From positions 1,704,277 to 1,768,276 of the forward strand of contig NZ_KB913013.1 in the NCBI RefSeq assembly GCF_000383955.1: a stretch of 64,000 nucleotides of DNA, given 5' to 3'. This stretch comes from Rudanella lutea DSM 19387. GTDB lineage: Bacteria; Bacteroidota; Bacteroidia; Cytophagales; Spirosomataceae. Below are positions 36,401 to 56,094 of the stretch, in pieces (the stretch's first letter is position 1; each line of letters starts with the position of its first letter). A program made the translations under genes and the position numbers. The notes under the pieces are model-generated. The model did not search any database. It saw only the letters and a list, made by a program, of their open reading frames with translations, and was not told the origin of the DNA.

Positions 36401-38298
36401 GCCCCGGCACCATCACGCCGAGCGGCAACACAGCTTCCGTATCCGGCCTGTCGGCTGGTGTACAAACGTTTACGGTAACAGCCGTGGATGCTACGTCGCC
36501 CACCGCCCAAACTACCAGCACAACAGTTAGCGTATCGGTTACTCAGCAAAACCTGGCCCCGGTAGCTCCCACGGTAGCTCCGCAGTCAGCTACGGTAGGG
36601 GCTGCATTTAGCTACGTGGTTCCTGTCTTTACGGACCCCAACGGCGACGCACTTACCTACGCAGCTACGGGCCTACCCGCCAACGGTCTGAGCTTTGATG
36701 CCACGTCGCGTGCGATCACGGGTACGCCTTCGACAACGGGTACAGTCAACGTAACCGTTACGGCCACCGATCCCGGTAGCCTCTCGGCATCCGTGACATT
36801 TACTATCACGATCAGCCCGGCTCCCCCGCAGAACCTAGCCCCGGTCGCTCCCACGGTAGCTCCGCAGTCAGCTACAGTAGGCACCGCCTTTAGCTTCACG
36901 GTTCCTGTCTTTACGGACCCCAACGGCGACGCACTTACTTACGCAGCAACAGGCCTGCCCGCCAACGGCCTGAGCTTTGACGCCACGTCGCGTACGATCA
37001 CCGGTACCCCGTCGATGTCGGGTACAGTCAACGTAACGGTTTCAGCCACCGACCCCGGCAGCCTCTCAGCGTCGGTAACCTTTGCTATTACAGTTAGCCC
37101 GGTTGCCAGCACGACCACTGCTCCGCCTTCGGGCTCGGCGCTGACCCTACTGACACCGACATACAACTGTTCTACAGGCGACATCACGTTTAACACTACG
37201 GGTGGCGACGGTACGACCATTACGTATGTAGCCATTGGTGTTCAACGGGCCTCAGCCACCAGCAACACGGGTGTGGTAGAAGCCGGTCTGCGCGCCGATG
37301 CCAAACCGCTGACTATCTCGGCAACCCAGAGTGGTACTACAGTAAGCATCACGTTTGACTTTGCCGCTTTCTGCGCCAACCCCGGCTCGGGTACAACCAC
37401 TACCCCGCCTTCGGGCTCAGCTCTGGCGCTGCTGCCACCCACCTACAACTGTGCAACGGGCGACATTACCTTCAACACCCAGGGTGGCGATGGTACAACC
37501 ATTACGTACTCAGCAGTAGGTGTACGGCGGGCTTCAGCCACCAGCAATACGGGTGTAGTAGAAGCGGGCCTGCGCGCCGATGCCAAACCGCTGACCATCT
37601 CGGCAACCCAAAGCGGTGTAACGGTAAGCATCACGTTTGACTTTGGTGCTTTCTGCGCCAACCCCGGCTCGGGTACTACCACTACCCCGCCAACGGCAAC
37701 TACCACCTGCGGCAGCTCGGCCAGCACCATTGGTCAGTCGCTTCAGGTAACAGGGGTAACAGATGTGAATTGCCAGACGGGTACGTTCCGGATTCTGACC
37801 AGTGGTGGCAACGGCAGCGCGATTAGTTACGCCAACATAGTTGGGTTGAGCAACGCTGATCCGACCAACTGTCTGCGTAGCGTCGATGGTCCTGATCTGT
37901 TGCGGGCTATCAATACGGCTTCGTCTGATATTGGCCCGTTCAGTCTGCGTGTTAGCCAGGGTAGCGTACAGAGCAACACCTTTAGCTTCAACTTCAAGCA
38001 GTACTGTACGGCTGTTCCTGCCCGGATCGCCCGCGAGGCAGCTGCCGAGCTAAACGTCACGGTGCTGGGTAACCCCACCACGAGCGAAGCTGTTGAGGTC
38101 GACGTACGCGGAGCCGGTCAGGAAGCAGTGCGATTTGTATTGACAACGGTACAGGGTCGGGTGATCAACCAGAACTCAGCACAACCGGTACAAGGCACCC
38201 TACGGCAGCGTATCGAACTGGGTAATGCTACGGGTATTTATTTACTCCAGGTTACTACCGACACCCAGAAACAAACCGTGAAAATTGTGAAGCAGTAA
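33403..38298 (+). CDS. Giant T9SS-secreted endonuclease/exonuclease/phosphatase-domain protein (1631 aa)
   Basis: Order: signal peptide (1-27, ending SAWAQ); beta-sandwich (28-248); putative-Ig (He_PIG) repeat (256-346); beta domain (347-456); OB-like domain (about 460-656; VEGRVTVSSQFGGRLFYIQDATAGMAVF); endonuclease/exonuclease/phosphatase domain (about 680-955) with catalytic motifs LVTWNVEWFG, YAIQEI, VINIHAKSG, ILTGDYNDDVD and STSDHYPSLTRF; an Ig-like domain; two near-identical He_PIG repeats (about 1050-1235); three copies of a two-cysteine module (about 1245-1330, 1339-1422, 1436-1535); and a T9SS type A sorting domain ending QKQTVKIVKQ. It is therefore exported through the outer membrane and attached or released. 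It probably degrades extracellular DNA or acts as a phosphodiesterase; the OB-EEP pairing resembles secreted bacterial nucleases (ExeM-like). Confidence 0.9.
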   Translation: MTKHLLTRPLTWLWLMLLALSAQSAWAQVSLTSGSLTYTQDFNSLSSSANMTWANNSTLPGWYAVNSTGAPLTSLSIGTGSSNAGAFFNFGSSASTDRALGSSASGAAGLGSPGTGAVALRYGVLFTNNTGSAITSLSVTYTGEQWRNGGNTTAQILAFEYATGSTLSLSATSGYTSVSNLSFTTLVNTATAAALDGNASANRTTLSQLITFTTPVANGESIILRWNDLNDSGNDHGFGIDDLSVTATIQVTGPQPPVVANAIPAQTGTAGTPFNFVIPANTFSDPNNDALTYTVSGLPDGLSFSSSTSAITGTPTTAGGSSVTVVASDPGSLSVATTFTLTINPANSPSLAVSPNALSGFTTSLGTASAEQSYTVTTANLTNDVTVTASGNVQISTTSGSAYTGSLTIPAATTSTVIFVRLSDGAPAGPFSGNITHTSGVLTATVSVSGTVSVPVGAPISIATARTLSGNTVTVEGRVTVSSQFGGRLFYIQDATAGMAVFSGASPAVAIGSVAELGDLVRVTGLVKVFNGYLEIDSPTGYTITKGTSVDVPAPVVITSIDQLSANQGRLVQLADATFTSGGTTFATTSSNYSITAGGQNGIFRVNASSELAGATKPTTATLTGIAERFVNGSTAAGNDNMQLQGRILRDVSGAATGGASGSFCAGDGTTSGNDSSFDLVTWNVEWFGHPTNGPSNNDQQATNVRTVLQNLNADIYAIQEISDLPRFAATVSQLGSYSYVCSDRYSYSFSNPPDAFGQRVCVVYKTSTVTPVIGETRAYLTDFPVSNYPTGNNSSFWASGRFPFLFTADVNINGATRRVRVINIHAKSGSATEDLARRVYDLNALKQRMDADFPNDAVILTGDYNDDVDVSIAVGNPSPYKPFVDDAGNYRVVTSVFNQSACSTTGGYPDAIDHIMVSNELFANTIANATTSVRPIIANYLNSTSDHYPSLTRFAFAAPVTALTLTASASPSAITTSGTTTLSATVAGGSSPYTYSFSGPGTITPSGNTASVSGLSAGVQTFTVTAVDATSPTAQTTSTTVSVSVTQQNLAPVAPTVAPQSATVGAAFSYVVPVFTDPNGDALTYAATGLPANGLSFDATSRAITGTPSTTGTVNVTVTATDPGSLSASVTFTITISPAPPQNLAPVAPTVAPQSATVGTAFSFTVPVFTDPNGDALTYAATGLPANGLSFDATSRTITGTPSMSGTVNVTVSATDPGSLSASVTFAITVSPVASTTTAPPSGSALTLLTPTYNCSTGDITFNTTGGDGTTITYVAIGVQRASATSNTGVVEAGLRADAKPLTISATQSGTTVSITFDFAAFCANPGSGTTTTPPSGSALALLPPTYNCATGDITFNTQGGDGTTITYSAVGVRRASATSNTGVVEAGLRADAKPLTISATQSGVTVSITFDFGAFCANPGSGTTTTPPTATTTCGSSASTIGQSLQVTGVTDVNCQTGTFRILTSGGNGSAISYANIVGLSNADPTNCLRSVDGPDLLRAINTASSDIGPFSLRVSQGSVQSNTFSFNFKQYCTAVPARIAREAAAELNVTVLGNPTTSEAVEVDVRGAGQEAVRFVLTTVQGRVINQNSAQPVQGTLRQRIELGNATGIYLLQVTTDTQKQTVKIVKQ
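37135..37386 (+). repeat. Two-cysteine secreted module, copy in nuclease-domain protein (1 of 2 tandem)
   Basis: Encodes the YNCSTGDITF to FAAFC module. The next stretch (37420-37668) is a tandem near-copy at DNA level (for example the shared run from GCCACCAGCAA through the GGCCTG/GGTCTG codons). It is part of the nine-copy family described in the findings. Confidence 0.8.
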
Positions 38299-38320
38299 TC
38301 TTCGTTTTTTCGCAAAAAAC

Positions 38321-38355
38321 TGAAAGAGGCCCCTCAATTTGAGGGGCCTCTTTCA
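38321..38355. terminator. Hairpin terminator after the nuclease-domain gene
   Basis: A 16-bp perfect stem pairs 38321-38336 with 38340-38355, with a 3-base loop. The stem is closed by TGAAAGAGG / CCTCTTTCA, giving a T-containing 3' arm. Confidence 0.8.
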
Positions 38356-38602: not shown

Positions 38603-41600
38603 ATGTCTCACCTACTACGACCACCAACCGGCCGTCTTTTGACGTGCCTGTTGGTACTGCTCTCCTTATGCTTGGCGCGCAGTGGTCAAGCACAAACCCC
38701 CGTTCCTTTAGCCTCTCAACCTGGGTTATCTTACACAGCTACCTTTGCAGATATCGCTAACTGGACGAACGACTTTGCGGCTGGCATAGAAGCCAACCGA
38801 TTCAAAGGAGTTCCCATAGGCGGTTCTGCTTCGATACCTGATCCGACTCGAACCACACATACGAGCACTTCCTTTACAAGTGGATCATCGGGTGGGGTAC
38901 AAAGAGGTTCCGGTACATTAGTCTTATTAGCCACTGGAACAACTGACAACACAAACAGTGTAGCCGTTGACTTTTATGTGAGCTTCACGGGGCTGAAAGC
39001 CGGAACACTGTCGTTCGATGCGTCGACAATAGATAACAGTACTGGCAACCGAAAGGGTACGTTGAAAGTATATGGATCAACCGACAACGGCGCCAGCTTT
39101 ACAGACCTGAATGCCAACTATGTAGCGACCAACAACGTAGCTGGTTCAGCAAACGTATCGGTGCAGTTACCAGCGGCATATAATAATGCAACTTTAGCCA
39201 TCTTCCGGCTGTACTACCATAACGGTGGTACACCTGCAGGCACTACGGGCAGCCGTCCGAAAATTGCGGTTGATAATCTGACAGTCACGGGTTTCGAAAA
39301 CACCGTTACGCTCGCCAGCAGCAACTCGATTAACTGCGAGCTGACTTCGGCAACCATCACGGCGGCTGCTTCGGCCACCGATGCATCAACAACGTACGCA
39401 TTTAGCGCGGGGGCTACTCCCGTTGCCCCGAATAGCAATCAGGCTGTCGTCAACACGGCAGGCCCCCACTCAGTCGTAGTCAATACGACTGGTTACATAT
39501 CGAGTTCGGCCACGATTACCATCACCGTTGATCAAAACCCGCCCGTGCTGAGCATTTCGCCTTCGGCAACGGCCATTTGTAGCGGGGCTACGGTAGGCCT
39601 TACGGCAAGCGGTGCAGTATCGTACACCTGGAGTACAGGGGCTAACACGGCCACCATTAACGTCAACCCCACCAGCACCACTACCTACACAGTAACCGGT
39701 GCCAACGCGGGCGGCTGTACCAGCACCAGTACGGTAACGGTAACAGTGAACTCGTTCGGAACAGCACCCACGCTCACGCCGAGCGGGACACTGGGTTGCG
39801 GAGCGCCAACCATAACACTGACCGCTACGCCAGCCGGTGCGGCTAATTATGCGTTTACGGGTCCGGCGGCTGTTACCGCAAGCGGAGCCACGGCCACCGT
39901 AAATACCCCCGGCACGTACACGGTTACAGTAACCGATGCCAACGGCTGCTCGGCTACGGCCACCGCTACCGTAACGGGCACGGGGGGCAGCTGCCCAGTG
40001 CAGAACGTGACCAAGAATCTGTTCTACGCCACGATTCAGGCAGCCGTTTCGGCCGCGAGTGCCAACGACCTCATCTATGTACCCGCCGGCACCTACGACG
40101 AGCTGGTGGTGATCGACAAGCCGCTTTCGCTCAGCGGTCAGGGCGTCAGCACCAATGTGACCTTTACGGGTACGGTGCCTGGCTCAGCGGTTGCGTCGCT
40201 CTTCACGGTAGCCTCGGCCGACGTGACGATTCAAAACTTCGGTTTTACGGTGAATCAGAGCAAGACGCACTCGGCCATCCACACAACCGGCAACGACCGC
40301 TCGAACCTGCGCGTGCTGAACAACACCATCACACCAGTTGGTCCGGTTGCCGGTTCTTATGGACTTCGTAATGCCATTGCTATCAACCCGATCGTGAGTA
40401 CCCCTAACTACACACTCGACAACGACGGGTTTGGGGGTGTGGTCGTGCAGGGCAACCGGGTCAATGCTACTGCAACCAATGCATTCCGGGCGGCCGTTCA
40501 GATCGATCTGGCTTCGGGTATCATTGGCGGCACGGGTGCTGGTCAGGGTAACTCGTTTACGGCGATCAACCACGATGTAGTGGCCCGCTTTACCGAGCAG
40601 GGCGACATCACCATCCAGGGTAACACGGCCGGTGGCGGTGGTATTCAGATTTCGGACCCCAATCCGGGAGCTGGCACCATCACGGTATCGAACAACACCT
40701 TCGACGGAACATTCGCACAGCCCACTACTGGCGTCCTCCCAAGCGGAGCCCTTCTGCGGATTCAGAATAACGGTATTTCGGGCACGAAAACCCTGCTGGT
40801 ACAGAACAACACGTTCTCGAACCACCGCTGGGCTATCAGCGCCGAAAACAACGCGGGCTTCACCATCACGGGTAATACCTTTACGCCCAATGCAGCCGCT
40901 ACCGACTACCGCCATATCTCAGTCAACACAAAGCTGATTGCCTCGAACAGCGCTACGTTGACCGACGCGCAAATGCAGACGCTGGGCGGTACTATTGCGG
41001 GCAACACGTTCAACGGCTCGTCGACGCCCAACAGCGGAACGGCCATTGCGTTCCTGAACCACCGCACAGCCGGGGCCAAGTTTGGCGCGTTTACCATTGG
41101 TTCGTCAGGTTCTGAGAACCAGTTCAACGCAGCAATCGGCACGTTTGTCATGCTCGACAACAGCACCGGAGCCAGCTCAGGCTACGGCTCGCCTTTCGGT
41201 GATTATGCGGGCGTACCATCGGCTATCACGACCATGGGCCCCTGGGCTACCGACCTCGACATTCGGAACAACCGGTTCGATATTGGCGGTGGTCTGACAC
41301 TGCCCTCGGCCTTCAACGGTACGCAGCGTGCTACCCTCGAAACCCGGCTCTTCCACAAGCCCGACGATGTTACGGTAGGTCGACTGCTGTACTTTGATCC
41401 GGTACGTAACCTCACCCAGAACACGTTCTTCCCCACTATCCAGTCGGCAGTTAATGCCGCCAATGCAGGCGACGTGATCCAGGCAGCGGAGTACACCTTC
41501 AACGAGCGGGTAACCATCGACAAGTCGCTCACTCTGCAAGGAGCCAGCAAAACCGCCACCATCCTCGACGGTACAGGACTGAGTGGTACCGGCAGCGGTA

Positions 41601-44600
41601 TCTCGATCAATAGCGGAGTTACCAACGTGACTATCCGCAACCTGACCGTGCAGAAGTATGTGGGTAACGGCCCCAACAGCAGTGCCGGTATCTACGCAGC
41701 TCTGGGCAACAACAACCTGGTCATCTCGGACGTACAGTCGCTGAGCAACTCGGGTGGCTCAGGCTTCTACGCCAACGGGCCCGTGCAGAGTGTGACGGTA
41801 ACGAGCTCGACCTTCTCGGGCCACGACAACTCGAAAGGGGCAGCCCGGGGTATTGTGATCTGGAACGGCTTCAAGCAGAACATCTACATCGTCAACAACA
41901 CGGTGACCAACAACAACTGTTGCGGCATCGAGTTGCAGGACGGTACGGCATCGGGCGTAACCATCACGGGGAACACCGTAACGGGTAACGGCGACAGCGG
42001 CATTGGCCTTACGGGCTTGAAAGGTGGAGCTGGTGCTAACCTCATCGCCGGAAACACGATTTCGAACAACGGCCGTTTCGGCATCGAAGTCAAGAATCCG
42101 AACGGAACGGGTGCCACTTCGGGCGATGGCAGCATCGTCGTAGAAAACAATACGGTAAGCTTTGCCGCCAGCCCATCGATGAACAACCGCGACCATGCGG
42201 GTATCTCGGTGTACCGGCGGGCTATGCTGCCGAACAACACCGAAGGCTACCCGGATGTACCCACAGGCGTTGTGGTTCGGAACAACACCGTGACGGGCTT
42301 CACGCACCAGAATCAGGTGTCAGCACCAACCGAGAGCGAAGGCTTCGGTATCGTGATCGAAGGCCGGAACCATACCGTAACGGGTAACACGCTGAATAAT
42401 AATAATATTGGTATTCAGCAGCAAGGCGGTTTGCACCCCACGGCCAACTACGTAGCCAATAACGCGGGCGATGGCCTTCAGGATGCCGGTGCGTCCCCAT
42501 CTTACTTCGGCCGGGGCAACTCACCGACCGTATGTAACAACACGGTGGATGCCAATAACTTTAGCGGCAACACAACAGACGTTCGGTACAGTGGCCCGGC
42601 CGCCTTTACGGTAACGGCCCTGGCCTCGTCGGCAACGGCCTGCATCGGGCAACCGGTTGAACTGTCGGCTCAAACCGTCAACGGTACGGCTCCGTACAGC
42701 TTCACGTGGGTAGCGCCCGCCGGTGCCACCATCAATGCCACCAACCTGAGCGCCGTAACGGGTACGCTGTCGGCATCGGGCACGCAAACGTTCACGGTTA
42801 ACGCACAGGACACGTACGGTTGTACCACATCGGCAACGGTGGTCGTAACCGGCAAGCCTCTGCCTGTAGCTACGCTGGTAGGCCCGGCCGAAATCTGCGC
42901 GGGCAACAGCCTGACGCTGACTGCCGGTGGTGGTGTTAGCTACGTGTTCTCACCCAATGTGGTCAGCAGCACGGGCAACACGGCCATTATCAACGCAGCC
43001 GGCACGTACTCGGTAACAGCGACAAACAGCGACGGTTGTACCGCCAGCAAGAGCCTGACAGTAACCGAGGCAGCAGCGGCTACCGCTACCCTCTCGTCGG
43101 CTACCTTGACTTGCGCCCAAACGAGCGTAACTCTGACCGCCACCGGTGGTACCAGCTATACCCTGAGCGACGGACAGACCAACACAACGGGTCTCTTCAC
43201 CGTAACGGCCGCCGGTAACTACACCGTAACGGTAAGCAACGCAGCCGGATGTACCGCTACAGCGACCTCATCGGTAACGCTGAATAACACGCAGCCTACC
43301 CTGACCATCAGCCCCTCGGCCACCACGATCTGTGCCGGCACGAGTACGAACCTGACAGCCAGCGGTGCGGCATCGTTCACCTGGAGTACAGGCGCCACAA
43401 CGGCCGGTATCAGCGTATCGCCCACGACGACAACGGTTTACTCGGTAACGGGTACCAACGCCATTGGTTGTACGGGTACGGCATCCGTTACGGTGACCGT
43501 AAATCAGATTCCGAATGTGACGGTAGCCGTGAACCCCTCGCAAACCGTTTGCGCAGGCACGTCGATCACACTCACAGCGAATGCTCCTGCGGGCAGCACA
43601 TACCGCTGGGCTCCGGGTCTGATCAACAACACTTCAGCCTCGTTTGCTCCGCTGCTTCCGATCAACACAACCACTACGTACAGTGTAACGGTAACCAACG
43701 CCGGTTGCCGCACCACCATCAGTACGGAGGTCACCGTGAACCCACGGCCAACGGTATCGGTATCGCCAAGCGCAGCCTCGATTTGCTCAGGTCAGTCGGT
43801 AACGCTGACGGCCAACGCAACCGGCACGGGTCCGTTCAGCTACACCTGGACCAACGCGCCAGCGGGTCAGCAGAACAATCCGTTTATCGTGGTTGATGCA
43901 AGTGGTGCCTACACGGTTCGGGTAACCGATGCCAACGGATGTACCCCATTGCTGCCGGGTGCTTCAGCCATTGTAACGATTGGTCTGCCAGCCGCTCCTG
44001 TGGTCAGCAGCACCAACAACTTCACGGCCTGCGAGGGTACGCCAGTTAGCCTGTCGGCCAGCTGCGTAACGAATACAACCGCCCGCTGGCGTGCAAGCGA
44101 TGGTACCATCACCAACGCATCAACGCTCAGCAGCCCAAGCACGGCCGGTACGTATAACTACACGGTTGTCTGCGTAGCTTCGGGCATTGGCAACTGCGAA
44201 AGCACCTCGATTCTGGCAACGGCTACTGTATCGGCTGCGCCGGTGGTTAGCCTGGCAGGTCCGGCCCTGGTGTGCTCAGGTAGCAGCGCTACGCTGACGG
44301 CATCGGCGGCTGCACCCGGCACCACGTATGTGTTCTCGTCGAATGTGGTGAGCAGTGCCGGTAACACGGCGGTGATCAACGCGGCAGGCACCTACTCGGT
44401 AACGGCTACGGCCAGCGGTTGCTCGTCGACCACCAGCCTCACCGTAGGTGCGGGTACGACGCCAACGGCTTCGCTCACCAACAGCGGTGTACTGAGCTGC
44501 TCGAACACGACGGTTACGCTGACCGCTACGGGCGGCAACAGCTACACCCTGAGCAATGGGCAGAGCAATACGACGGGTATCTTCACCGTATCAACAGCCG

Positions 44601-47600
44601 GTACTTATACCGTGACGGTAGGTAACGGCGACGGTTGCACCTCGACGGCAACAACTACGGTAACGAGCACCACCAACGCCATCACGGCAACACTGGTGGC
44701 GAGCGGAACCCTCTCGTGCGCCAACCCAAGCGTAACCCTTACGGCTACCCCATCGGGTCTGGCTTCGTATGTGTTCAGTGCGGGTGCTACCCAAATTGGT
44801 GGCAGCACGGGTAATACCGCTACCGTAACCACGGCGGGTACGTACTCCGTTACGATCACCGACGCGGGTGGTTGCTCGGCAGTGGCACAGGTTACCGTAA
44901 TGGGTAGCTCAACCGCTCCGGTGGCCTCACTCACCGCCAGCGGTGTACTCAGCTGCTCAACTACGTTTGTTGCCCTGACCGCTTCACCAGCGGGTGCTGT
45001 CTCGTACGCATTCAGTTCAGGTGCCACCCAGATTGGCGGCAGTGCGGGCAATACGGCTACCGTAACGACACCGGGTATCTACTCAGTAGTCATCACGGGT
45101 GCTAATGGCTGCACCACCTCGGCTTCGGTTACGGTGATGGGCAGCAGTACCGCCCCAACGGTCAGCCTGGCCAACAACGGCACCATTACCTGCAACAACA
45201 CGAGCGTAACACTGACCGCTACGCCGGCTGGTCAGGGTACGTATATGTTCAGCGCGGGTGCTACGCAGATTGGCGGCAGCACGGGTAACACCGCTACGGT
45301 ATCGGCAGGTGGTACTTACACCGTTGTAGTAACGGCGGCTAACGGCTGCACGGCTTCGGCTACAACCACGGTCGAAAGCGCCACCAACGCGGTCAACGCA
45401 ACACTGGCAGCTTCTGGTACACTCACCTGTGCCCAAACGAGCGTGACCCTGACAGCTACGGGTGGCAACAGCTACACCCTGAGCAACGGTCAGTCCAACA
45501 CGACGGGTATCTTCACCGTATCGACGGCCGGTACATACACCGTAACCGTAAGCAATGCCGGCAACTGCACGGCAACCGCTACCGCGACGGTGATGAGCAG
45601 CACCGCTGGCCCGGCCGTAACGATTGCGGCTCTGCCGGGTAATACGGTAACGATGGGTCAAGGCCTGACGCTGACGGCCTCGGGTGCCACCAGCTACACC
45701 TGGAGCACCGGTGCCACCACGGCGAGCATCAACCCGCCCACCTCAGCAACGGGAACCTTTACCTACTCGGTAACGGGTACAGCGGGTAACGGCTGCTCAG
45801 GCACGGCGACGGTCTCAATCACGGTATCGAACACAGTAGCACCGGCCTGTGGTAGCCCAGCAGGTACCATTGGTCAGCCGCTGGCGCTGATGGAGCCGAT
45901 CTACAACTGTCAGACAGGTCAGATTCAGTTTATCACCGTAGGTGGTAACGGTAGCCCGATTACGTTCTCGGCAGTGGGTATCACTGGCCCAACCATGAGC
46001 TGCACAGCGATGGTTGACGGTCAGGTAGCGATCGACATCCGCAACCAGAGCACCAACGTGCAACCGTTTGTTCTGTTTGCAACGCAAAATGGCGTAACGG
46101 TGAGCTATACCTGGAACGCCCTGGCAGCCTGCTCGGGTGGTATGGGTAACAACTCGCCAACGGTCGTAAACCCAGTGGGCCCGCAGTCGGCTACGGTTGG
46201 TGTACCGTTCACGCTGAACATCGGGAATGTATTTAGCGATATGGAAACGCCGAACAGCCTGGTGCTGTCGGTAAGTGGCCTGCCTGCCGGTCTGACCTTC
46301 AGCGGTACGACCATCAGCGGCACGCCATCGTTCTCGGGTGTGAGCACGGTTACGCTACGCGCCACCGATCCGGGTAGCCTCTCAACCGGCGCTACCTTCA
46401 CGCTGACCGTAAGCCCGGCCAGCAGCACGACGGTAGCTCCGCCTGCCAACACGGCCCCCACGGTGGCCAACGCAGTAGGACCTCAGTCGGCAACGGTGGG
46501 TACCGCTTACTCGCTCAACGTGGGTGGTGTCTTCACCGACGCCCAGACGCCGGGTAGCCTCGTGCTCTCAGCCAGCGGTCTGCCGGCTGGTCTGTCACTG
46601 GCAGGAACCACCATCAGCGGTACCCCATCAGTATCGGGTGTGGTTACCGTTACGCTGACGGCCACCGACCCCGGTAGCCTCTCGGCCAGCACCAGCTTCC
46701 AGCTTACGGTGAGCCCAGCAGCCAGCACCACGACCAACCCACCTGTGGGCGGTCCGTTGGCCGCTACGGTGGTGAGCTACAACTGCCAGACGGGTGCGAT
46801 TGTCTTTGGTTCGACGGGTGGCAACGGTTCAGCGGTTGAGTATCTGGCCATCGGTATCACCGGCTGGACCACCAACACCAACCACATGATCGAAGCTGGT
46901 CTGCGGGCCGATCCCAAGCCGGTGACGGTGCGGGTACGCCAGAACGGTGTGGAAGGAACCGCCTTTGTCTTCGACTTTGGTGCCTTCTGCTCGGGCAACC
47001 CACAACCGCCCACCAACACGGCCCCCACGGTGGCCAACGCGGTAGGACCTCAATCGGCAACGGTAGGTACCGCTTACTCGCTCAACGTGGGTGGTGTCTT
47101 CACCGACGCCCAGACACCGGGTAGCTTAGTGCTCTCAGCCAGCGGTCTGCCGGCTGGTCTGTCACTGGCAGGAACCACCATCAGCGGTACCCCATCGGTA
47201 TCCGGTGTGGTTACCGTTACGCTGACGGCCACCGACCCCGGTAACCTTGCAGGTAGCACCAGCTTCCAGCTCACGGTAAGCCCGGCAACGAGCGGCACAA
47301 CCACCCCGCCTGCGCCTGCAAGCTGTGGTAGCCCAGCCAATACGTTGGGTGGTGCACTCCAGATCACGGGTGTAGCGGATGTGAATTGCCAAACGGGTAC
47401 GTTCCGGATTCTGACCAGCGGTGGCGACGGCAGCGCGATTAGCTACGCCAACATCGTCGGTCTGAAGAATGCCGATCCAACCAACTGTCTGCGTTCGCTG
47501 GATAACCAGGATCTGATCAATGCGGTGAACAACCCATCGTCTGACATCAATCCGTTCCAGCTGCGCGTAACTCAGGGTGGTAACACCAGTAACACGTTTA

Positions 47601-47911
47601 GCTTCAACTTCAAAGGCTTCTGCACAGGCGGAGCCCGGGTTGCACGCGAAACGGCTGCTGAGCTGGAGGTTACGGTAATGGGCAACCCAACTTCGGCCGA
47701 GTCAGTTGAGGTCGAGGTACGCGGAGCCGGCGACGAAGCCATCACCCTGCGCGTAGTTGCTCTGCAAGGTCAGTCGGTGAGCAACCAGTTAGTAACTCCT
47801 GCTTCGGGCGTAGCTCGTGGTCGGGTGAAACTGGGCGAATCGGCGGGCACGTACCTCTTGCAGGTAAGCACACCGACCCGGACTAAAACCGTGAAGGTGG
47901 TTCGGCAGTAA
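38603..47911 (+). CDS. Giant T9SS-secreted beta-helix/Ig-repeat adhesin-like protein (3102 aa)
   Basis: The start at 38603 (MSHLLRPPTGRLLTCLLVLLS) gives a signal ending SGQAQ; the 31 codons upstream in frame are not signal-like. Order: beta-sandwich (about 39-235); Ig/PKD-like repeats (235-463); two right-handed parallel beta-helices (about 464-930 and 937-1330) opening with FYATIQAAVSAASANDLIYVPAGTY and FFPTIQSAVNAANAGD, rich in NNTxTGN-like turns; a long array of SprB-like Ig repeats of about 80-95 residues (1333-2413; SGVLSCSNTTVTLTATGGNSYTLS type); then two-cysteine modules alternating with He_PIG repeats (2416-3008); and a T9SS type A sorting domain ending TKTVKVVRQ. The protein is probably displayed on the surface for adhesion, gliding or polysaccharide binding. 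The beta-helices could be lyase-like, but no catalytic triad is claimed. Confidence 0.88.
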   Translation: MSHLLRPPTGRLLTCLLVLLSLCLARSGQAQTPVPLASQPGLSYTATFADIANWTNDFAAGIEANRFKGVPIGGSASIPDPTRTTHTSTSFTSGSSGGVQRGSGTLVLLATGTTDNTNSVAVDFYVSFTGLKAGTLSFDASTIDNSTGNRKGTLKVYGSTDNGASFTDLNANYVATNNVAGSANVSVQLPAAYNNATLAIFRLYYHNGGTPAGTTGSRPKIAVDNLTVTGFENTVTLASSNSINCELTSATITAAASATDASTTYAFSAGATPVAPNSNQAVVNTAGPHSVVVNTTGYISSSATITITVDQNPPVLSISPSATAICSGATVGLTASGAVSYTWSTGANTATINVNPTSTTTYTVTGANAGGCTSTSTVTVTVNSFGTAPTLTPSGTLGCGAPTITLTATPAGAANYAFTGPAAVTASGATATVNTPGTYTVTVTDANGCSATATATVTGTGGSCPVQNVTKNLFYATIQAAVSAASANDLIYVPAGTYDELVVIDKPLSLSGQGVSTNVTFTGTVPGSAVASLFTVASADVTIQNFGFTVNQSKTHSAIHTTGNDRSNLRVLNNTITPVGPVAGSYGLRNAIAINPIVSTPNYTLDNDGFGGVVVQGNRVNATATNAFRAAVQIDLASGIIGGTGAGQGNSFTAINHDVVARFTEQGDITIQGNTAGGGGIQISDPNPGAGTITVSNNTFDGTFAQPTTGVLPSGALLRIQNNGISGTKTLLVQNNTFSNHRWAISAENNAGFTITGNTFTPNAAATDYRHISVNTKLIASNSATLTDAQMQTLGGTIAGNTFNGSSTPNSGTAIAFLNHRTAGAKFGAFTIGSSGSENQFNAAIGTFVMLDNSTGASSGYGSPFGDYAGVPSAITTMGPWATDLDIRNNRFDIGGGLTLPSAFNGTQRATLETRLFHKPDDVTVGRLLYFDPVRNLTQNTFFPTIQSAVNAANAGDVIQAAEYTFNERVTIDKSLTLQGASKTATILDGTGLSGTGSGISINSGVTNVTIRNLTVQKYVGNGPNSSAGIYAALGNNNLVISDVQSLSNSGGSGFYANGPVQSVTVTSSTFSGHDNSKGAARGIVIWNGFKQNIYIVNNTVTNNNCCGIELQDGTASGVTITGNTVTGNGDSGIGLTGLKGGAGANLIAGNTISNNGRFGIEVKNPNGTGATSGDGSIVVENNTVSFAASPSMNNRDHAGISVYRRAMLPNNTEGYPDVPTGVVVRNNTVTGFTHQNQVSAPTESEGFGIVIEGRNHTVTGNTLNNNNIGIQQQGGLHPTANYVANNAGDGLQDAGASPSYFGRGNSPTVCNNTVDANNFSGNTTDVRYSGPAAFTVTALASSATACIGQPVELSAQTVNGTAPYSFTWVAPAGATINATNLSAVTGTLSASGTQTFTVNAQDTYGCTTSATVVVTGKPLPVATLVGPAEICAGNSLTLTAGGGVSYVFSPNVVSSTGNTAIINAAGTYSVTATNSDGCTASKSLTVTEAAAATATLSSATLTCAQTSVTLTATGGTSYTLSDGQTNTTGLFTVTAAGNYTVTVSNAAGCTATATSSVTLNNTQPTLTISPSATTICAGTSTNLTASGAASFTWSTGATTAGISVSPTTTTVYSVTGTNAIGCTGTASVTVTVNQIPNVTVAVNPSQTVCAGTSITLTANAPAGSTYRWAPGLINNTSASFAPLLPINTTTTYSVTVTNAGCRTTISTEVTVNPRPTVSVSPSAASICSGQSVTLTANATGTGPFSYTWTNAPAGQQNNPFIVVDASGAYTVRVTDANGCTPLLPGASAIVTIGLPAAPVVSSTNNFTACEGTPVSLSASCVTNTTARWRASDGTITNASTLSSPSTAGTYNYTVVCVASGIGNCESTSILATATVSAAPVVSLAGPALVCSGSSATLTASAAAPGTTYVFSSNVVSSAGNTAVINAAGTYSVTATASGCSSTTSLTVGAGTTPTASLTNSGVLSCSNTTVTLTATGGNSYTLSNGQSNTTGIFTVSTAGTYTVTVGNGDGCTSTATTTVTSTTNAITATLVASGTLSCANPSVTLTATPSGLASYVFSAGATQIGGSTGNTATVTTAGTYSVTITDAGGCSAVAQVTVMGSSTAPVASLTASGVLSCSTTFVALTASPAGAVSYAFSSGATQIGGSAGNTATVTTPGIYSVVITGANGCTTSASVTVMGSSTAPTVSLANNGTITCNNTSVTLTATPAGQGTYMFSAGATQIGGSTGNTATVSAGGTYTVVVTAANGCTASATTTVESATNAVNATLAASGTLTCAQTSVTLTATGGNSYTLSNGQSNTTGIFTVSTAGTYTVTVSNAGNCTATATATVMSSTAGPAVTIAALPGNTVTMGQGLTLTASGATSYTWSTGATTASINPPTSATGTFTYSVTGTAGNGCSGTATVSITVSNTVAPACGSPAGTIGQPLALMEPIYNCQTGQIQFITVGGNGSPITFSAVGITGPTMSCTAMVDGQVAIDIRNQSTNVQPFVLFATQNGVTVSYTWNALAACSGGMGNNSPTVVNPVGPQSATVGVPFTLNIGNVFSDMETPNSLVLSVSGLPAGLTFSGTTISGTPSFSGVSTVTLRATDPGSLSTGATFTLTVSPASSTTVAPPANTAPTVANAVGPQSATVGTAYSLNVGGVFTDAQTPGSLVLSASGLPAGLSLAGTTISGTPSVSGVVTVTLTATDPGSLSASTSFQLTVSPAASTTTNPPVGGPLAATVVSYNCQTGAIVFGSTGGNGSAVEYLAIGITGWTTNTNHMIEAGLRADPKPVTVRVRQNGVEGTAFVFDFGAFCSGNPQPPTNTAPTVANAVGPQSATVGTAYSLNVGGVFTDAQTPGSLVLSASGLPAGLSLAGTTISGTPSVSGVVTVTLTATDPGNLAGSTSFQLTVSPATSGTTTPPAPASCGSPANTLGGALQITGVADVNCQTGTFRILTSGGDGSAISYANIVGLKNADPTNCLRSLDNQDLINAVNNPSSDINPFQLRVTQGGNTSNTFSFNFKGFCTGGARVARETAAELEVTVMGNPTSAESVEVEVRGAGDEAITLRVVALQGQSVSNQLVTPASGVARGRVKLGESAGTYLLQVSTPTRTKTVKVVRQ
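46447..46700 (+). repeat. Long direct DNA repeat inside the giant gene (copy 1)
   Basis: The He_PIG-encoding segment here recurs at about 47017-47270 with only scattered, mostly third-position differences, so it is a recent duplication or gene conversion. The segment between the two copies encodes a two-cysteine module. Confidence 0.8.
47017..47270 (+). repeat. Long direct DNA repeat inside the giant gene (copy 2)
   Basis: Near-identical to 46447-46700. Recombination between the copies would delete one module and one He_PIG unit (about 570 bases) and keep the frame. Confidence 0.8.
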
Positions 47912-51153: not shown

Positions 51154-51165
51154 ATAATCTCGACA

Positions 51166-51570: not shown

Positions 51571-54500
51571 ATGCTTAAAAAATTTACCCTTCCGTTATTA
51601 GTGTTTATTTGCTTATCGGTTACATGCAACTACGTCTTCTCGCAAGACATTCCGGCACAAACGGCCTTGATTCCGTCGCCCCGAAAAGCGTTTACGCCGA
51701 CCCCGCAATCGGTACGGGGGTATTGGAATATCGACGTAGTCGATGACTTTACGCTGCCCAAGAGTAAACACCTTACCTTTAGTGGGGCCGGGCGCAACCT
51801 GCACGTTAAAGACAGTTGGGACAAACTGTTCCGAAGGGGGTTTTCGGCTATTGAGCGATCGCGGATGACCGACGACGAGCTCGGCTACTCGCCTTTAGCC
51901 AACGCCAAGTACGACCGGGGGTCAAAATTCACACAGTCGAGTACCTGGACCAGCCGGCTACTACCCGAGCAACGTTCGCTCATTCTGTACCAGAACTATT
52001 TTACTGACTTACCCTTTAACCTACCCTGGGCCCGCAACAGCGACCTGGCCAAGGACACGTATTTTCTGCGGCCACCCGGCTCGATCAACGAGCGCGAGAG
52101 TCTGGGGCAGGCCATGTCTGAGCTGAGCGGGGGTTGTGTTGGCTTCGGTGACTGCCCACCTTCGGGGCAGGTAAGTACGTTCGGCAAGATTTTCTTCGAC
52201 ATTGAAAACGAAGGCACCAGCCCTGGCAACGAGCAGGAGCACGCTAATCTGTACGTGTACAAGATGTGGATGCTTCGGCAGCGTATCAGCCCGTACACCG
52301 AAATCGGTGGGATTGGCCCGGTGCCGCACAACAGTTATGGCTACTCGCGTTCGTCGGACTTTGCCAATATTAGCTCGCCCGACTGGCTTTGGCGTATGCC
52401 CGCCAAACAGATTGACGCCACTAATACCCGAGGCCGGGGTATGCCCGATGCGATTGTGGGTAAAACCTTTGGCGAACTGGCTCATTTCCAGATGCCCGGC
52501 ACGTACTTTTTGTCGTCGGACTTCGATTATGCGGCCCGGCACAACGGCGATGAAGACCGGCACTGGCTTGCCAGCGTATTGGGCGAGCAGGAAGTGAACA
52601 TGAAGCTTTCGCCCAAAAAGCGAATTGCGTGGCAGTGGCTGTTCAACACCCAAAGTTCGGAACCGGGGCAGGCTGCCCGGGCTGAATACCCGGCTCCACC
52701 GGCCATTGCCGAAGGAATGGCTATTTTTTACTGGTTTACGGGCGCACACGGGGCTATTCTGTGGGACGACTGGAATATTCTGACGCCCAATGCCCCCGTG
52801 GTACCGGGCCGCGAAAACCTCGACAACGACCGCAACTATAGCGTGTACGAGCACTACCTCCACGGCCTGTGGCGGCTGTTTAAGCACCACGGTGACCTGT
52901 TCAACGGGCAGGAGATCTACCTCAACGAAGCCACCGAATGCTCGTACGATAACGGTAAGACCTGGTACCGGCTCAACTCAAATGCCCAGAAGCGGAGCGG
53001 GAAGCCGTTTGCCCGCGCCATTGTCAACGGAAGTCAGATTCTGATTGCGGCTACCCAACCGTACGCGTCGGCGAGTCAGGAAACCCAGATGATGGTGCGG
53101 TACGTGCAGGGTAACTACCGCTTTTATACAACGATTAACCTGAAGGGCGACGAAATTTTTCTGGGTCGGGCAACCATGCCTACCGGCACAAGCTCTTTCT
53201 CGCCAGCTCTGACCACCATGGACCCACCGGCTCCCAAGCCGTTGGCCGCTACCGTATCAACGTACAACTGCTCAACGGGGGCTATTGTATTCGGGTTTAC
53301 AGGTGGCAGCACCACCTCGCCCGTCGAGTACAAAGCACTGGGTATCACCGACTGGACGACCAACGCCAACCAGGTCATTGAAGCCGGCCTGCGGGCTGAC
53401 CCAAAAACGATCACAATCTATATTCGGCAAAATGGCGTAGAGGGAGCTCCGTATAATTTCGACATGAAAGCGTACTGCTCGGGTAACCCGCTGCCACCCG
53501 CCAATACCGCGCCGGTGGTAGCCAAAGCCCTATCTCCTGAGTCGGGAACGGTCGGAGTTGGGTACAGCCTGAACCTGAGTACGGTATTTACCGATGCCGA
53601 AACGCCAACCGGGCTGGTGCTGTCAGTGGCAGGTTTGCCCGCGGGCCTTCAGTTTTCGGGGGGTACCATTTCGGGAACGCCTTCGGTATCGGGGGTGAGT
53701 ACCATTACCGTTACAGCTACCGATCCGGGGAACCTATCGGCACAGACAACCTTTGCACTAACCATTAACCCGGCCTCTGCCCCCACTCCCACCCCTCCGC
53801 CCCCAATAACCGGCGGGCCACTGGGAGCCACGGTGGTTACGTACAACTGTTCGACAGGGGCCATTATGTTCGGCTTTACCGGCGGTAATGGCTCAACGGT
53901 TGAGTACGCGGCTATCGGTATTACGGGCTGGACCACCAACCCCTCGCATATTCTGGATGCGGGCTTACGCTCCGACCCCAAAACTATTTCGGTTATGGTT
54001 CGGCAGGGCGGTGTGCAGGGGCTGTCGTTTTCGTTCGATATGAAAGCCTATTGCAGCGCCCCGCAGCCTGTAACCAACACAGCCCCTACGGTGGTGAACC
54101 TTGTTGGACCACAGTCGGCCACGGTTGGTACGGCGTACTCGCTGAATATTGGCTCAGTGTTTACCGATGCCCAGACGCCCGGCAACCTGACTTTGTCGGC
54201 AGCGGGACTACCTGCAGGCTTGACCCTCACGGGAACCGCCATCACCGGCACCCCCTCGGCATCGGGCGTGAGCACCATTATGCTCAAGGCCACCGATCCC
54301 GGTAACCTGACTACTGCGACCAGTTTTCAACTGACGGTAAGTCCGGTACCAAGTGTAACTGTGGTGACCAACACAGCTCCCACTATTGCGAACCTCGTTG
54401 GAGCACAAACAGCTACGGTTGGCACGGCCTACTCGCTCAACGTGGGCAACGTCTTCACCGACGCCCAAACGCCCAACAGCCTGACCTTGTCGACCCTGGG

Positions 54501-56094
54501 GCTCCCGACCGGCCTGACCCTAAACGGTAGCCTAATTACCGGTACGCCTTCCACTTCGGGGGTAAGCAATGTGGCTCTTATAGCTACCGACCCCGGCAGT
54601 CTCTCCACCGTTACTCTTTTTGTGCTGACGGTGAACCCGGCTCCGAGCGTGACGGTAGTGACCAACACGGCCCCTACCGTGGTGAACCTCATCGGCGCAC
54701 AAACGGGTACTGTCGGTACGGCGTACTCGCTGAATATTGGCTCGGTGTTTACCGATGCCCAGACGCCCGGTAGCCTGACCTTGTCGGCAATGGGCCTGCC
54801 TGCGGGCCTGACCCTGACGGGAACGGCCATCACCGGCACCCCCTCGGCGACAGGTGTGAGTACCATTACGCTCAAAGCCACCGACCCCGGTAACCTGACG
54901 GCCGCCACCAGTTTTCAGTTAACGGTACGTTTGGGGAATACGCCCCCGGTTGTTGTGAATCCCGTTGGCCCACAGTCGGGTACAACCGGTGTAAGCTACA
55001 GCCTGAATGTAAGCGCCATTTTTACGGATGCCGAAACCCCCACGCAACTGCTGATGTCGATTAGCGGACTGCCAGCGGGGCTGCAACTGTCGGGCTCTAA
55101 TCTGGTTGGTACGCCAACCGTAGCCGGTAGCAGCACTATGATTATTACCGTGACCGATCCGGGAGGGCTCTCAACGACGTTCCGGATTCCGATTACGATT
55201 GTGCAGGGCAACACGCGCCCCGTTATTGCCAATCTCGTCAGTCCGCAAACGGCTACGCAGGGTGTAAGCTATACGCTCAATGTAGGGTCGGTGTTTACCG
55301 ATATGGAAACCCCCAATAGCCTGACGCTATCGGCAGTGGGCCTTCCGGCCGGGTTAACCCTCACCGGTACCACGATCACCGGAACGCCTTCGGTCACTGG
55401 CCAGAGCAGTGTGGCCCTCGTAGCCACCGATCCCGGCAGCCTCACTACCGCTACCATTTTTCTCTTGACGGTGAATGCGCCCGTGAGTACCACCGGTTGC
55501 GGCAGCCCGGCCAACACCATTGGTCAAACACTGCGGATTATGGGCGTTACGGATGTGAATTGTCAGACGGGTACGTTCCGCATCAGTACACGCGGAGGTA
55601 ACGGCACTACGATATTCTACGACAACAACGTGGGCCTGAAAAATACCGACCCAACTAACTGTTTGCGGATACTCGACAATCCGGATATGGTGAAGGCAAT
55701 CAACAACCCGAACTCCGACATCGGAGCTTTCCAACTGAAAGTTCGGCAGGGCAACGTGACCAGCAACACGTTTACGTTCAACTTCAAGCAGTATTGCACC
55801 GGTGCTGGAGCTACCTCCCGCATGGCTTACGAAAGCCCCGGTGACCTAACCGTACTGGTCTTGGGGAACCCCACACCCGACGAATGGGCCCGGCTCGAAA
55901 TTCAGTCGGTTGGCAACGAACCCCTTTCGCTACAGGTCTTGAACGTACAGGGGCAGGTACTCAGCATCCGGCACGTTGAGCCCTCAGGCGACACGATTCG
56001 GCAGCAGGTATGGCTGGGCAAAACACCCGGCGTATTTGTGGTGCAGGTTAGTACGCCCACACGCAGCCAAAGCGTAAAAGTGGTGAAGCAATAA
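51571..56094 (+). CDS. T9SS-secreted protein with unrecognised N-terminal domain and putative-Ig repeats (1507 aa)
   Basis: The start at 51571 (MLKKFTLPLLVFICLSV) gives a signal ending VFSQ at residue 25. Residues about 27-550 form one large globular domain I do not recognise. It has IFFDIENEGTSPGNEQEH, GIGPVPHNSYGYSR, HNGDEDRHW, RIAWQWLFNTQSSE and EGMAIFYWFTGAHGAILWDDWN, reminiscent of a glycosidase barrel with acidic residues at strand ends. Then come two-cysteine module 1 (about 557-637), He_PIG, module 2 (about 750-830), six He_PIG-like repeats (about 833-1305), module 3 (about 1310-1410) and a T9SS type A sorting domain ending SQSVKVVKQ. Calling the N-domain a carbohydrate-active enzyme is a guess; secretion and surface location are well supported. 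Confidence 0.85.
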   Translation: MLKKFTLPLLVFICLSVTCNYVFSQDIPAQTALIPSPRKAFTPTPQSVRGYWNIDVVDDFTLPKSKHLTFSGAGRNLHVKDSWDKLFRRGFSAIERSRMTDDELGYSPLANAKYDRGSKFTQSSTWTSRLLPEQRSLILYQNYFTDLPFNLPWARNSDLAKDTYFLRPPGSINERESLGQAMSELSGGCVGFGDCPPSGQVSTFGKIFFDIENEGTSPGNEQEHANLYVYKMWMLRQRISPYTEIGGIGPVPHNSYGYSRSSDFANISSPDWLWRMPAKQIDATNTRGRGMPDAIVGKTFGELAHFQMPGTYFLSSDFDYAARHNGDEDRHWLASVLGEQEVNMKLSPKKRIAWQWLFNTQSSEPGQAARAEYPAPPAIAEGMAIFYWFTGAHGAILWDDWNILTPNAPVVPGRENLDNDRNYSVYEHYLHGLWRLFKHHGDLFNGQEIYLNEATECSYDNGKTWYRLNSNAQKRSGKPFARAIVNGSQILIAATQPYASASQETQMMVRYVQGNYRFYTTINLKGDEIFLGRATMPTGTSSFSPALTTMDPPAPKPLAATVSTYNCSTGAIVFGFTGGSTTSPVEYKALGITDWTTNANQVIEAGLRADPKTITIYIRQNGVEGAPYNFDMKAYCSGNPLPPANTAPVVAKALSPESGTVGVGYSLNLSTVFTDAETPTGLVLSVAGLPAGLQFSGGTISGTPSVSGVSTITVTATDPGNLSAQTTFALTINPASAPTPTPPPPITGGPLGATVVTYNCSTGAIMFGFTGGNGSTVEYAAIGITGWTTNPSHILDAGLRSDPKTISVMVRQGGVQGLSFSFDMKAYCSAPQPVTNTAPTVVNLVGPQSATVGTAYSLNIGSVFTDAQTPGNLTLSAAGLPAGLTLTGTAITGTPSASGVSTIMLKATDPGNLTTATSFQLTVSPVPSVTVVTNTAPTIANLVGAQTATVGTAYSLNVGNVFTDAQTPNSLTLSTLGLPTGLTLNGSLITGTPSTSGVSNVALIATDPGSLSTVTLFVLTVNPAPSVTVVTNTAPTVVNLIGAQTGTVGTAYSLNIGSVFTDAQTPGSLTLSAMGLPAGLTLTGTAITGTPSATGVSTITLKATDPGNLTAATSFQLTVRLGNTPPVVVNPVGPQSGTTGVSYSLNVSAIFTDAETPTQLLMSISGLPAGLQLSGSNLVGTPTVAGSSTMIITVTDPGGLSTTFRIPITIVQGNTRPVIANLVSPQTATQGVSYTLNVGSVFTDMETPNSLTLSAVGLPAGLTLTGTTITGTPSVTGQSSVALVATDPGSLTTATIFLLTVNAPVSTTGCGSPANTIGQTLRIMGVTDVNCQTGTFRISTRGGNGTTIFYDNNVGLKNTDPTNCLRILDNPDMVKAINNPNSDIGAFQLKVRQGNVTSNTFTFNFKQYCTGAGATSRMAYESPGDLTVLVLGNPTPDEWARLEIQSVGNEPLSLQVLNVQGQVLSIRHVEPSGDTIRQQVWLGKTPGVFVVQVSTPTRSQSVKVVKQ

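What the first reader, a model, noticed from the sequence alone, without database searches (positions are those of the whole stretch)
37135..55800. Nine copies of an apparently undescribed two-cysteine module in three T9SS-secreted giants
Each of the proteins at 33403, 38603 and 51571 carries three copies of a domain of about 80-100 residues. The pattern is: strand, NC-x-TG-x-(I/F)-x-F, x-GG-(N/D)-G-(S/T), (I/V)-x-(Y/F), x-(A/N)-(I/V)-(G/V), a variable arm, then (L/V)-x-(V/A)-x-Q-x-G-x(4)-F-x-F-(D/N)-x(3)-(F/Y)-C. Approximate spans are 37135-37386, 37420-37668, 37706-38010, 45847-46134, 46756-46992, 47320-47625, 53240-53480, 53818-54057 and 55498-55800. There are two subtypes: a short form with EAGLRADPK, and a long form (CGSxAxTxGQ... 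NADPTNCLRSLD) that always sits directly before the T9SS sorting domain. The framing cysteines could form a disulfide. Position before the sorting domain suggests a stalk, anchor or glycan-binding role. I recognise no named family.
Basis: partly seen in the sequence, partly recalled or inferred. Interest (0 to 1): 0.75.

Follow-up and report, generated by a model that had tools for sequence, protein, structure and literature searches.

The report
Cysteine-stapled domain in secreted bacterial proteins
A small, so far uncurated protein building block with two paired cysteines usually sits just before the export tag of secreted proteins in one group of bacteria, probably as a rigid spacer that holds very different working ends at the cell surface.

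Summary
Observation confirmed. The nine modules are where stated, form one homologous family and have no consistent match to Pfam, NCBIfam or PDB sequences. The window's genome, a Rudanella, holds 78 copies in 31 ORFs; in 26 the last copy ends 90-105 residues before the C-terminus, and these are among 62 type A T9SS sorting domains found. Hits are confined to one family: 66 of 200 family genomes, none outside it in order, class and phylum draws. Of 275 distinct modules 274 have both framing cysteines, one neither, none one: good evidence for a disulfide. The model is an Ig/FN3-like sandwich (pLDDT 95). Modules go with a sorting-domain subtype (GNP) and an ARxA linker. Heads are unrelated. Best reading: a disulfide-stapled spacer before the sorting domain, like the gingipain IgSF domain in place and fold type, but a separate, expanded, uncurated family. 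Glycan binding is untested. The NADPTNCLR-type long form is always next to the sorting domain (11 of 11), the other four-cysteine form is not (7 of 16).

The parts
33403..38298 (+). Protein A, 1631 aa: head with Exo_endo_phos match, He_PIG repeats, three modules, T9SS sorting domain
35443..36180 (+). Exo_endo_phos (nuclease/phosphatase) match in protein A, residues 681-926
   Evidence: E 7.4e-12
37138..37374 (+). module A1, short form, 79 aa
37420..37656 (+). module A2, short form, 79 aa
37708..38007 (+). module A3, long four-cysteine form (L1), 100 aa, directly before the sorting domain
38071..38295 (+). T9SS type A sorting domain of protein A (GNP subtype)
   Evidence: TIGR04183, E 5.6e-8
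38603..47911 (+). Protein B (ORF open from 38510, likely ATG at 38603): head with a NosD-like match below that family's cut-off, Ig-like array, three modules, sorting domain
45848..46132 (+). module B1, intermediate four-cysteine form (L2), 95 aa, not next to the sorting domain
46754..46990 (+). module B2, short form, 79 aa
47324..47623 (+). module B3, long form (L1), 100 aa, directly before the sorting domain
47684..47908 (+). T9SS type A sorting domain of protein B (GNP subtype)
   Evidence: TIGR04183, E 1.1e-4, 22.1 bits, cut-off 23; over cut-off
51571..56094 (+). Protein C (ORF open from 51340, likely ATG at 51571): head without Pfam match, six He_PIG stretches, three modules, sorting domain
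53239..53478 (+). module C1, short form, 80 aa
53818..54054 (+). module C2, short form, 79 aa; the one whose structure was predicted
55498..55797 (+). module C3, long form (L1), 100 aa, directly before the sorting domain
   Evidence: identical in sequence to the copy in L091 that is counted
55894..56091 (+). T9SS type A sorting domain of protein C (GNP subtype)
   Evidence: TIGR04183, E 3.1e-6

Best explanation
The module is an extracellular Ig/FN3-like beta-sandwich of about 75-100 residues, closed by a disulfide between the turn after its first strand and its last residue. It is used as a spacer (stalk) between unrelated working heads and the T9SS C-terminal sorting domain. After Sec export the module folds and is oxidised in the periplasm; the T9SS moves the protein out by its C-terminal domain; PorU removes that domain in or near the 'ARxA' linker that follows the module's last cysteine, so that in the mature protein the last module is the part nearest the cell surface. 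The disulfide ties residue 11 to residue 79, so pulling or proteolysis at the ends can open only the first strand: a stiff, protease-resistant link. Four-cysteine forms add a second staple from the leader (CG[SADP]) to the arm. Shown here: the family, its cysteine pairing by covariation, its usual place, its link to a sorting-domain subtype, its range. Inferred: the bond itself, oxidation, the PorU cut site, the mechanical role.
For: Homology of all nine copies. 78 copies in 31 ORFs of the own genome. Cysteines: 274 both, 1 neither, 0 single of 275 distinct modules (with narrower windows 271 both, two copies whose profile match starts late but hold the first cysteine, one copy, in L108, with the last cysteine five residues further on, and the one without either). 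Leader and arm cysteines go together: of 27 copies with CG[SAD] upstream 26 have an arm cysteine, the exception being the tail of a preceding module, and one more (CGP) also has both. AF2 model pLDDT 95.3, pTM 0.83, seven strands; nearest solved folds are Ig and FN3-type domains (VIA Z up to 7.9, 69 residues aligned, rmsd 2.4). The last module ends 90-105 residues before the C-terminus in 26 of 31 own ORFs and 67 of 89 ORFs from other loci; of the 22 others 6 are cut by a locus end and 16 are not. Heads differ: SASA esterase (3), nuclease, trypsin-like, GSDH, DUF4331, DUF285, FG-GAP, SBBP, SprB (2) among the 27 of 31 ORFs scanned. The own genome has a PorU at 1255 bits. The most conserved columns are glycines (14, 22, 23, 34, 65), hydrophobic positions and Gln63. 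Low dN/dS. In gingipain RgpB an Ig domain precedes the CTD and 'may act as a spacer or insulator' (PMC4804311, abstract and passages).
Against: No coordinates could be measured, so the Cys11-Cys79 distance is inferred from topology. Fold matches are weak (no Foldseek E at or below 0.001; VIA Z under 8 may be only a common arrangement). Three own-genome ORFs (L058, L065, L070) and 16 uncut ORFs of other loci carry their last module elsewhere, and L058's module lacks both cysteines, so neither place nor disulfide is absolute. 36 of 62 sorting-domain matches are not seen to follow a module, so it is not needed for export as such. No binding assay or force data. The variable arms could as well be ligand loops. 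Acid or amide residues recur at positions 10, 24, 47, 53 and 74, so metal binding is not excluded.
Confidence: 0.6

Rival explanations
1. The module is an accessory glycan- or matrix-binding domain: it holds secreted enzymes and adhesins on extracellular polysaccharide, the variable arm giving specificity.
For: Carriers include three SASA esterases, one of them with CBM_6 and CBM_35 matches; copy number per ORF is 1-4, as for many CBMs; Foldseek lists surface glycan-binding protein B (7kwb, E 0.087) among its weak hits and VIA lists 7kv6 and 7kv7 of the same kind; the arm varies in length and sequence.
Against: Positions that are aromatic in over 80% of modules (9, 18, 30, 73) look like core positions in strands, and the candidate exposed W38 is aromatic in only 66%; heads include a nuclease, a trypsin-like domain and DUF4331 with no obvious common ligand; the 7kv6 match is to chain residues 39-114, which I recall, not from a call, as part of the Ig-like spacer and not the binding site.
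Confidence: 0.17
2. Module, ARxA linker and GNP-type C-terminal domain together form a bipartite sorting or anchoring signal of the T9SS, read by a dedicated shuttle or sortase step that sends these cargoes to one destination.
For: Of 26 module-linked sorting domains 22 fall in one group with one other (91/88), 5 label changes against 19.7 in shuffles, 0 of 500; GNP motif 21 of 26 against 1 of 34; linker motif 26 of 26 against 7 of 34 (pattern chosen after seeing the rows); module count tracks the count of matches to the GNP-type profile over 37 family genomes (rho 0.84) better than the count of all sorting domains (0.47); the L1 form is CTD-adjacent in 11 of 11.
Against: GNP-type sorting domains occur without a module (L200 in the own genome; 10 of the 22 family genomes without a module match have at least one profile match, G035 having 14); four own module proteins have PNP-type domains; three carry modules elsewhere. 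Linkage may only reflect duplication of whole 3' gene ends; genomes are not independent points.
Confidence: 0.15
3. The module is simply a divergent He_PIG (putative Ig) repeat of the arrays in which it often sits, with no special role.
For: He_PIG stretches occur in 16 of the 27 module ORFs scanned; profile-profile comparison gives probability 52%, E 1.5e-4 over 53 columns; the orthologue of protein B in R. paleaurantiibacter has a repeated He_PIG-module unit.
Against: He_PIG is not among the families listed for any of 102 modules at E up to 1; the He_PIG repeats compared lack paired cysteines; 11 of the 27 ORFs have modules without He_PIG.
Confidence: 0.08

Closest known systems
IgSF domain of gingipain RgpB (Porphyromonas gingivalis)
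   Same: Ig-like domain placed directly before a T9SS sorting domain, joined by a disordered linker; proposed as spacer or insulator (PMC4804311, abstract and passages).
   Different: No disulfide in the gingipain domain (same paper); no detectable sequence relation (best PDB hit of the module profile E 0.73, an entry named ZZ4); the paper names it for Kgp, RgpB and PPAD, not as a family of dozens per genome.
FNIII-like domains D7/D9 of cytophagalysin
   Same: Ig/FN3-like domains in a Cytophaga protein; D9 is followed by a short linker and D10, which resembles the RgpB CTD (PMC11674741, passages).
   Different: Predicted only, and the authors leave open whether the protein is a T9SS cargo; none of the predicted disulfides seen in the passages lies in D7 or D9; one protein.
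SprB repeat (PF13573)
   Same: By eye: Cys, then G-x-(I/A)-x-(F/V)-x(3)-GG-x-G, then an aromatic; SprB repeats occur in two module ORFs.
   Different: Listed for only 1 of 102 modules, at E 0.18; profile-profile probability 2%.
He_PIG (PF05345)
   Same: Ig-like, often in the same proteins.
   Different: No paired cysteines in the repeats compared; sequence link only suggestive (52%).
Cross-linked Ig-like stalk domains of Gram-positive pili and adhesins (FimP; Mobiluncus giant adhesin)
   Same: Tandem Ig-like domains with intramolecular cross-links, in the Mobiluncus adhesin also disulfides (starts of abstracts in a search listing).
   Different: Cross-links are mainly of other kinds (ester, isopeptide, thioester); Gram-positive hosts; no sequence relation was sought beyond the PDB search.

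Membership tests
He_PIG PF05345 | Pfam match (cut-off 24 bits) on the module | tested here: not met
   best stretch shown lies outside the modules in each window protein; not listed for any of 102 modules at E up to 1
He_PIG PF05345 | profile-profile similarity | tested here: inconclusive
   probability 52%, E 1.5e-4, 53 columns, against 11 He_PIG repeats typed from own loci
SprB repeat PF13573 | Pfam match (cut-off 28 bits) on the module | tested here: not met
   1 of 102 modules, at E 0.18 (that call prints no bit scores for members)
SprB repeat PF13573 | profile-profile similarity | tested here: inconclusive
   probability 2%, 19 columns, against only 12 repeats of low diversity (Neff 2.3)
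TIG_plexin PF17960 | Pfam match (cut-off 22.7 bits) on the modules | tested here: not met
   one whole protein (L061) at 23.0 bits, no stretch passing on its own; 1 of 102 modules at E 0.089
T9SS sorting domain (TIGR04183 / PF18962) | C-terminal 70-75 residues with the sorting profile | tested here: not met
   the module lies before the domain; module against GNP-type domain 1.9%; the matches fall downstream
Ig/FN3-like fold | two-sheet beta-sandwich of 7 strands resembling solved Ig or FN3 domains | tested here: inconclusive
   model pLDDT 95.3; VIA Z up to 7.9 to Ig and FN3-type chains, but no Foldseek match at E 0.001
gingipain IgSF-type pre-CTD spacer | domain directly before the CTD in a T9SS cargo | tested here: met
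   26 of 31 own ORFs; adjacency to TIGR04183 matches
gingipain IgSF-type pre-CTD spacer | detectable sequence similarity to solved chains | tested here: not met
   profile of 102 modules against all PDB chains, one hit at E 0.73 (ZZ4)
carbohydrate-binding module | glycan binding | not testable with these tools
   no assay; no CBM family among the 22 listed for 102 modules
T9SS cargo | type A sorting domain and a T9SS sortase in the genome | tested here: met
   A, C over cut-off; B 22.1 of 23; all three over cut-off; PorU 1255 bits

The most novel reading that the evidence does not exclude
A clade of Spirosoma-like bacteria has rebuilt the end of its T9SS cargoes into a transferable cassette: stapled Ig-like module, ARxA linker and a GNP-type sorting domain, with a dedicated CTD-proximal form (L1). 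The cassette would act as a bipartite address that tells the sortase or shuttle where to leave the protein, and its spread over unrelated heads (26 of 62 type A sorting domains here) would be the modular equivalent of an LPXTG wall anchor with its stalk.
Probability: 0.15. Interest if true: 0.75.

Novelty: new variant of a known kind. Interest (0 to 1): 0.5.

Why it matters
T9SS work that I know of rests mostly on Porphyromonas and Flavobacterium. Here one uncurated domain stands next to 26 of 62 type A sorting domains in a genome and goes with its own sorting-domain subtype. That gives a natural test of whether the domain next to the signal takes part in sorting, cutting or anchoring, and a profile that would name part of proteins now called only 'T9SS type A sorting domain-containing protein', as the one plasmid hit is. 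The cysteine pair offers a simple handle (Cys to Ser) for testing stability and anchoring. If it is only a spacer, it is still a clear case of lineage-specific expansion of a stalk domain.

Tried and rejected
SprB origin: the eye sees Cys, G-x-I-x-F and GG-x-G in both, but profile-profile gives 2%, so it is not shown. Two separate families for short and long forms: rejected, short-only and long-only models find each other, although the long-only model missed C1 (E 7.3). Phage or virus source: 45 stretches in viral contigs matched the pattern, none encodes a relative. General T9SS requirement: rejected, 58 of 59 relatives have type A sorting-domain matches but only 15 of 59, the own genome counted, have modules. 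Wide spread: order draw 18 of 291, class draw 4 of 395, phylum draw 3 of 395, each hit in the window's own family; these draws overlap in part and include the own genome, and only 14-28 candidates per genome were scored, so match counts there are lower bounds and a weak miss is possible. Frame shift of a sorting domain in the amylase at 48184-51153: rejected, no sorting domain is seen in the other frames and the orthologue ends the same way. Long-form fold search: weak, Z at most 5.8; no conclusion drawn. Literature searches: I saw no description of this module among the titles and abstract starts listed; the library lacks most subscription journals.
Full report
WHERE IT IS. The window is position 1,704,277-1,768,276 of the main contig of a 6.55 Mb genome. 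Its congener G001 has a contig of 1,257,572 bases, the length of a contig of Rudanella paleaurantiibacter HX-22-17. Proteins A and C are 95% and 96% identical in amino acids to their orthologues there and the last 734 aligned codons of B 97%, with dS 0.48, 0.45 and 0.29. So the window comes from a Rudanella of another species, perhaps R. lutea, the only other named species; that last step is inference.

OBSERVATION. The nine copies are present at the stated places and align with ten invariant columns. A model from the five short copies finds the four others (E 4.6e-15, 1.4e-8, 5.5e-8, 1e-7); a model from the three long copies finds B1 and four of the five short copies at E 3.7e-11 to 7.7e-4 but C1 only at 7.3; the best controls were E 4.4 and 0.48. 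So short and long are one family. Copy B1 is intermediate: it shares the CGS..GQ leader with the long form and much of the body with the short one.

NAMED FAMILIES. In the window proteins Pfam finds He_PIG, Exo_endo_phos, Ig-like and sorting-domain stretches and no family whose best stretch lies on a module; NCBIfam likewise for these proteins. Scanned one by one, 102 diverse modules give 22 families with one or two members each, best E 0.0097, none consistent. One whole protein of another locus (L061) has TIG_plexin at 23.0 bits, just over that family's cut-off of 22.7, with its best stretch on a module; it did not recur. No PDB chain matches the profile better than E 0.73.

SPREAD. Own genome: 78 matches at E up to 0.01, and 78 in 31 ORFs by a model iterated on the fetched loci, whose set of 138 hits did not change over four rounds; a few of the 31 may be pieces of one gene. 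Same-genus genomes: 63, 50 and 29; G031 (contig lengths fit Arsenicibacter rosenii) 42; 15 of 59 relatives, the own genome counted, have a match at E up to 0.001. With the broader profile 66 of 200 genomes of the family, in 13 of 36 genera. Wider draws: 18 of 291, 4 of 395 and 3 of 395, each hit in the same family. A scan of named genomes gave 63 loci: Rudanella, Arsenicibacter, Spirosoma, Larkinella, Fibrisoma, Fibrella, three MAGs, and one record named Flavobacterium.

CYSTEINES. Of 275 distinct modules without N, 274 have both framing cysteines, one (L058) has neither, none has one alone. With narrower windows 271 pass: two more hold the first cysteine but their profile match starts late, and one (L108) has the last cysteine five residues further on. 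A pair that is kept or lost together is what a disulfide would give, though only one loss was seen. In four-cysteine forms the leader cysteine and the arm cysteine also come together: 27 copies had CG[SAD] upstream, 26 with an arm cysteine; the exception is the end of a preceding module. Eight copies without that leader have arm cysteines: one has a CGP leader, five have a CARTC-type pair within the arm, two have a single extra cysteine.

STRUCTURE. Short form C2: mean pLDDT 95.3, pTM 0.83, strands at 3-9, 15-21, 28-32, 36-39, 43-45, 56-63, 71-74. Cys11 lies in the turn after the first strand and Cys79 is the last residue. In an Ig-like topology the A-B turn and the end of strand G lie at the same pole, so the bond is plausible; this is inference, as coordinates were not at hand. 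Foldseek gives no match at E 0.001 (best 0.082). Re-alignment ranks chains of CD48, CD2, HCF-1, cytokine receptors and FN3 domains at Z 6.1-7.9 in the 50 rows shown; such Z values may only mean a common arrangement. I recall, not from a call, that the membrane-proximal CD2-family domain has an extra A-G disulfide. The long form was modelled less well (pLDDT 86.2) and has only weak matches (Z at most 5.8).

ARCHITECTURE. In 26 of 31 own ORFs the last module ends 90-105 residues before the C-terminus; the other five are L058, L065, L070, one ORF cut by a contig end and one that ends in N. In ORFs from other loci it is 67 of 89; of the 22 others 6 are cut by a locus end and 16 are not. The 26 coincide with TIGR04183 matches, of which the genome has 62. 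The up to about 390 residues before 35 of the other 36 were looked at: best module score E 0.024, 6.4 bits. The L1 type is CTD-adjacent in 11 of 11 distinct copies, the other four-cysteine type in 7 of 16, short forms in 73 of 248. Heads, in 27 of the 31 ORFs (four fragmentary, N-containing or short ones were not scanned): SASA esterase in three, Exo_endo_phos, trypsin-like, GSDH, DUF4331, DUF11, DUF285, FG-GAP, SBBP, SprB in two, CBM_6/35 in one; He_PIG in 16; some have no Pfam head. So the module is attached to unrelated functions.

SORTING DOMAIN SUBTYPE. Sixty sorting-domain ends of the own genome were compared: 26 after modules and 34 others (35 taken; one with N dropped; one of the 62, on the 3.7 kb contig, not included). 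Twenty-two module-linked ends fall in one group with one other (support 91/88, below the tool's own mark for a sure branch), 5 changes of label against 19.7 in shuffles, 0 of 500; columns are few and 26 of 57 inner branches open. Most have GNP where most others have PNP (GNP 21 of 26 against 1 of 34). Soon after the module's last cysteine comes x-R-hydrophobic-small in 26 of 26 against 7 of 34 others at the matching place, and in 54 of 67 ends from other loci (the pattern was chosen after looking). Across 37 family genomes the module count follows the count of matches to the GNP-type profile (rho 0.84) more than that of all sorting domains (0.47); genomes are related, so the p-values are not to be taken at face value, the profile may also pick up other types, and matches exist without modules (10 of 22 family genomes without modules, G035 with 14; L200 in the own genome). 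In the own genome 22 of the 26 listed profile matches (30 in all) follow a module.

EVOLUTION. Module codons are conserved between the two Rudanella (dN/dS 0.02-0.05; rest of the proteins 0.047-0.063). The orthologue of protein B has a repeated He_PIG-module unit with identical modules, where the window's protein has one: copy number changes by duplication of that unit.

MECHANISM. T9SS cargoes go by Sec to the periplasm, cross the outer membrane by their C-terminal domain and are cut and often attached to A-LPS by PorU (PMC10202324, passages). The own genome has a PorU. If the cut falls in the linker, the last module becomes the membrane-proximal end. RgpB has an Ig-like domain there, which may be a spacer or insulator and has no disulfide (PMC4804311, abstract and passages); cytophagalysin is predicted to have an FN3-like domain before a CTD-like one (PMC11674741, passages). 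So the kind is known; this family, its terminal staple, its scale and its coupling to a sorting-domain subtype are what is new to me. The title and start of abstract of PMC12618676 (listing only) speak of shuttle proteins that recognise T9SS signals, which makes the bipartite-signal reading testable.

VERDICT. A real, uncurated, lineage-bound domain family; most likely a disulfide-stapled spacer next to the T9SS sorting domain (0.6). New variant of a known kind.

Noticed in passing
window 48184-51153: An alpha-amylase-like protein (PRK09441-type models, below their cut-offs) with an SprB-type stretch ends soon after 'SCVSATNARMAS', the same cysteine and ARxA junction that precedes the GNP-type sorting domain, but shows no sorting domain; the Rudanella paleaurantiibacter orthologue ends likewise, so a loss would be old.
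   Followed up: partly
L091 (orthologue of the window protein at 38603): Two identical modules in a repeated He_PIG-module unit, where the window's protein has one: duplication of the unit.
   Followed up: partly
L117, L126, L130, L133, L142, L146, L151, L154: A record named Flavobacterium sp. SUN052 carries modules at 47-53% G+C, which is high for Flavobacterium as I recall it; it may be a misnamed relative of Spirosoma.
   Followed up: no
G000 contig C2 (203,683 bases), L080; plasmid NZ_CP089541.1: Two module ORFs lie on a 204 kb contig of the own genome and one plasmid of Spirosoma oryzicola encodes a relative, so the module also occurs on secondary replicons.
   Followed up: no
L200: A sorting domain of the GNP group without any module in the stretch read; by eye the head looks like a glycoside hydrolase (no call made).
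   Followed up: no
G035 (same family): Fourteen matches to the GNP-type profile but no module match: the subtype may be older than its link to the module.
   Followed up: no
L102, L125, L095: Spirosoma modules with a cysteine pair inside the arm (CARTC), perhaps another way of adding a staple.
   Followed up: no
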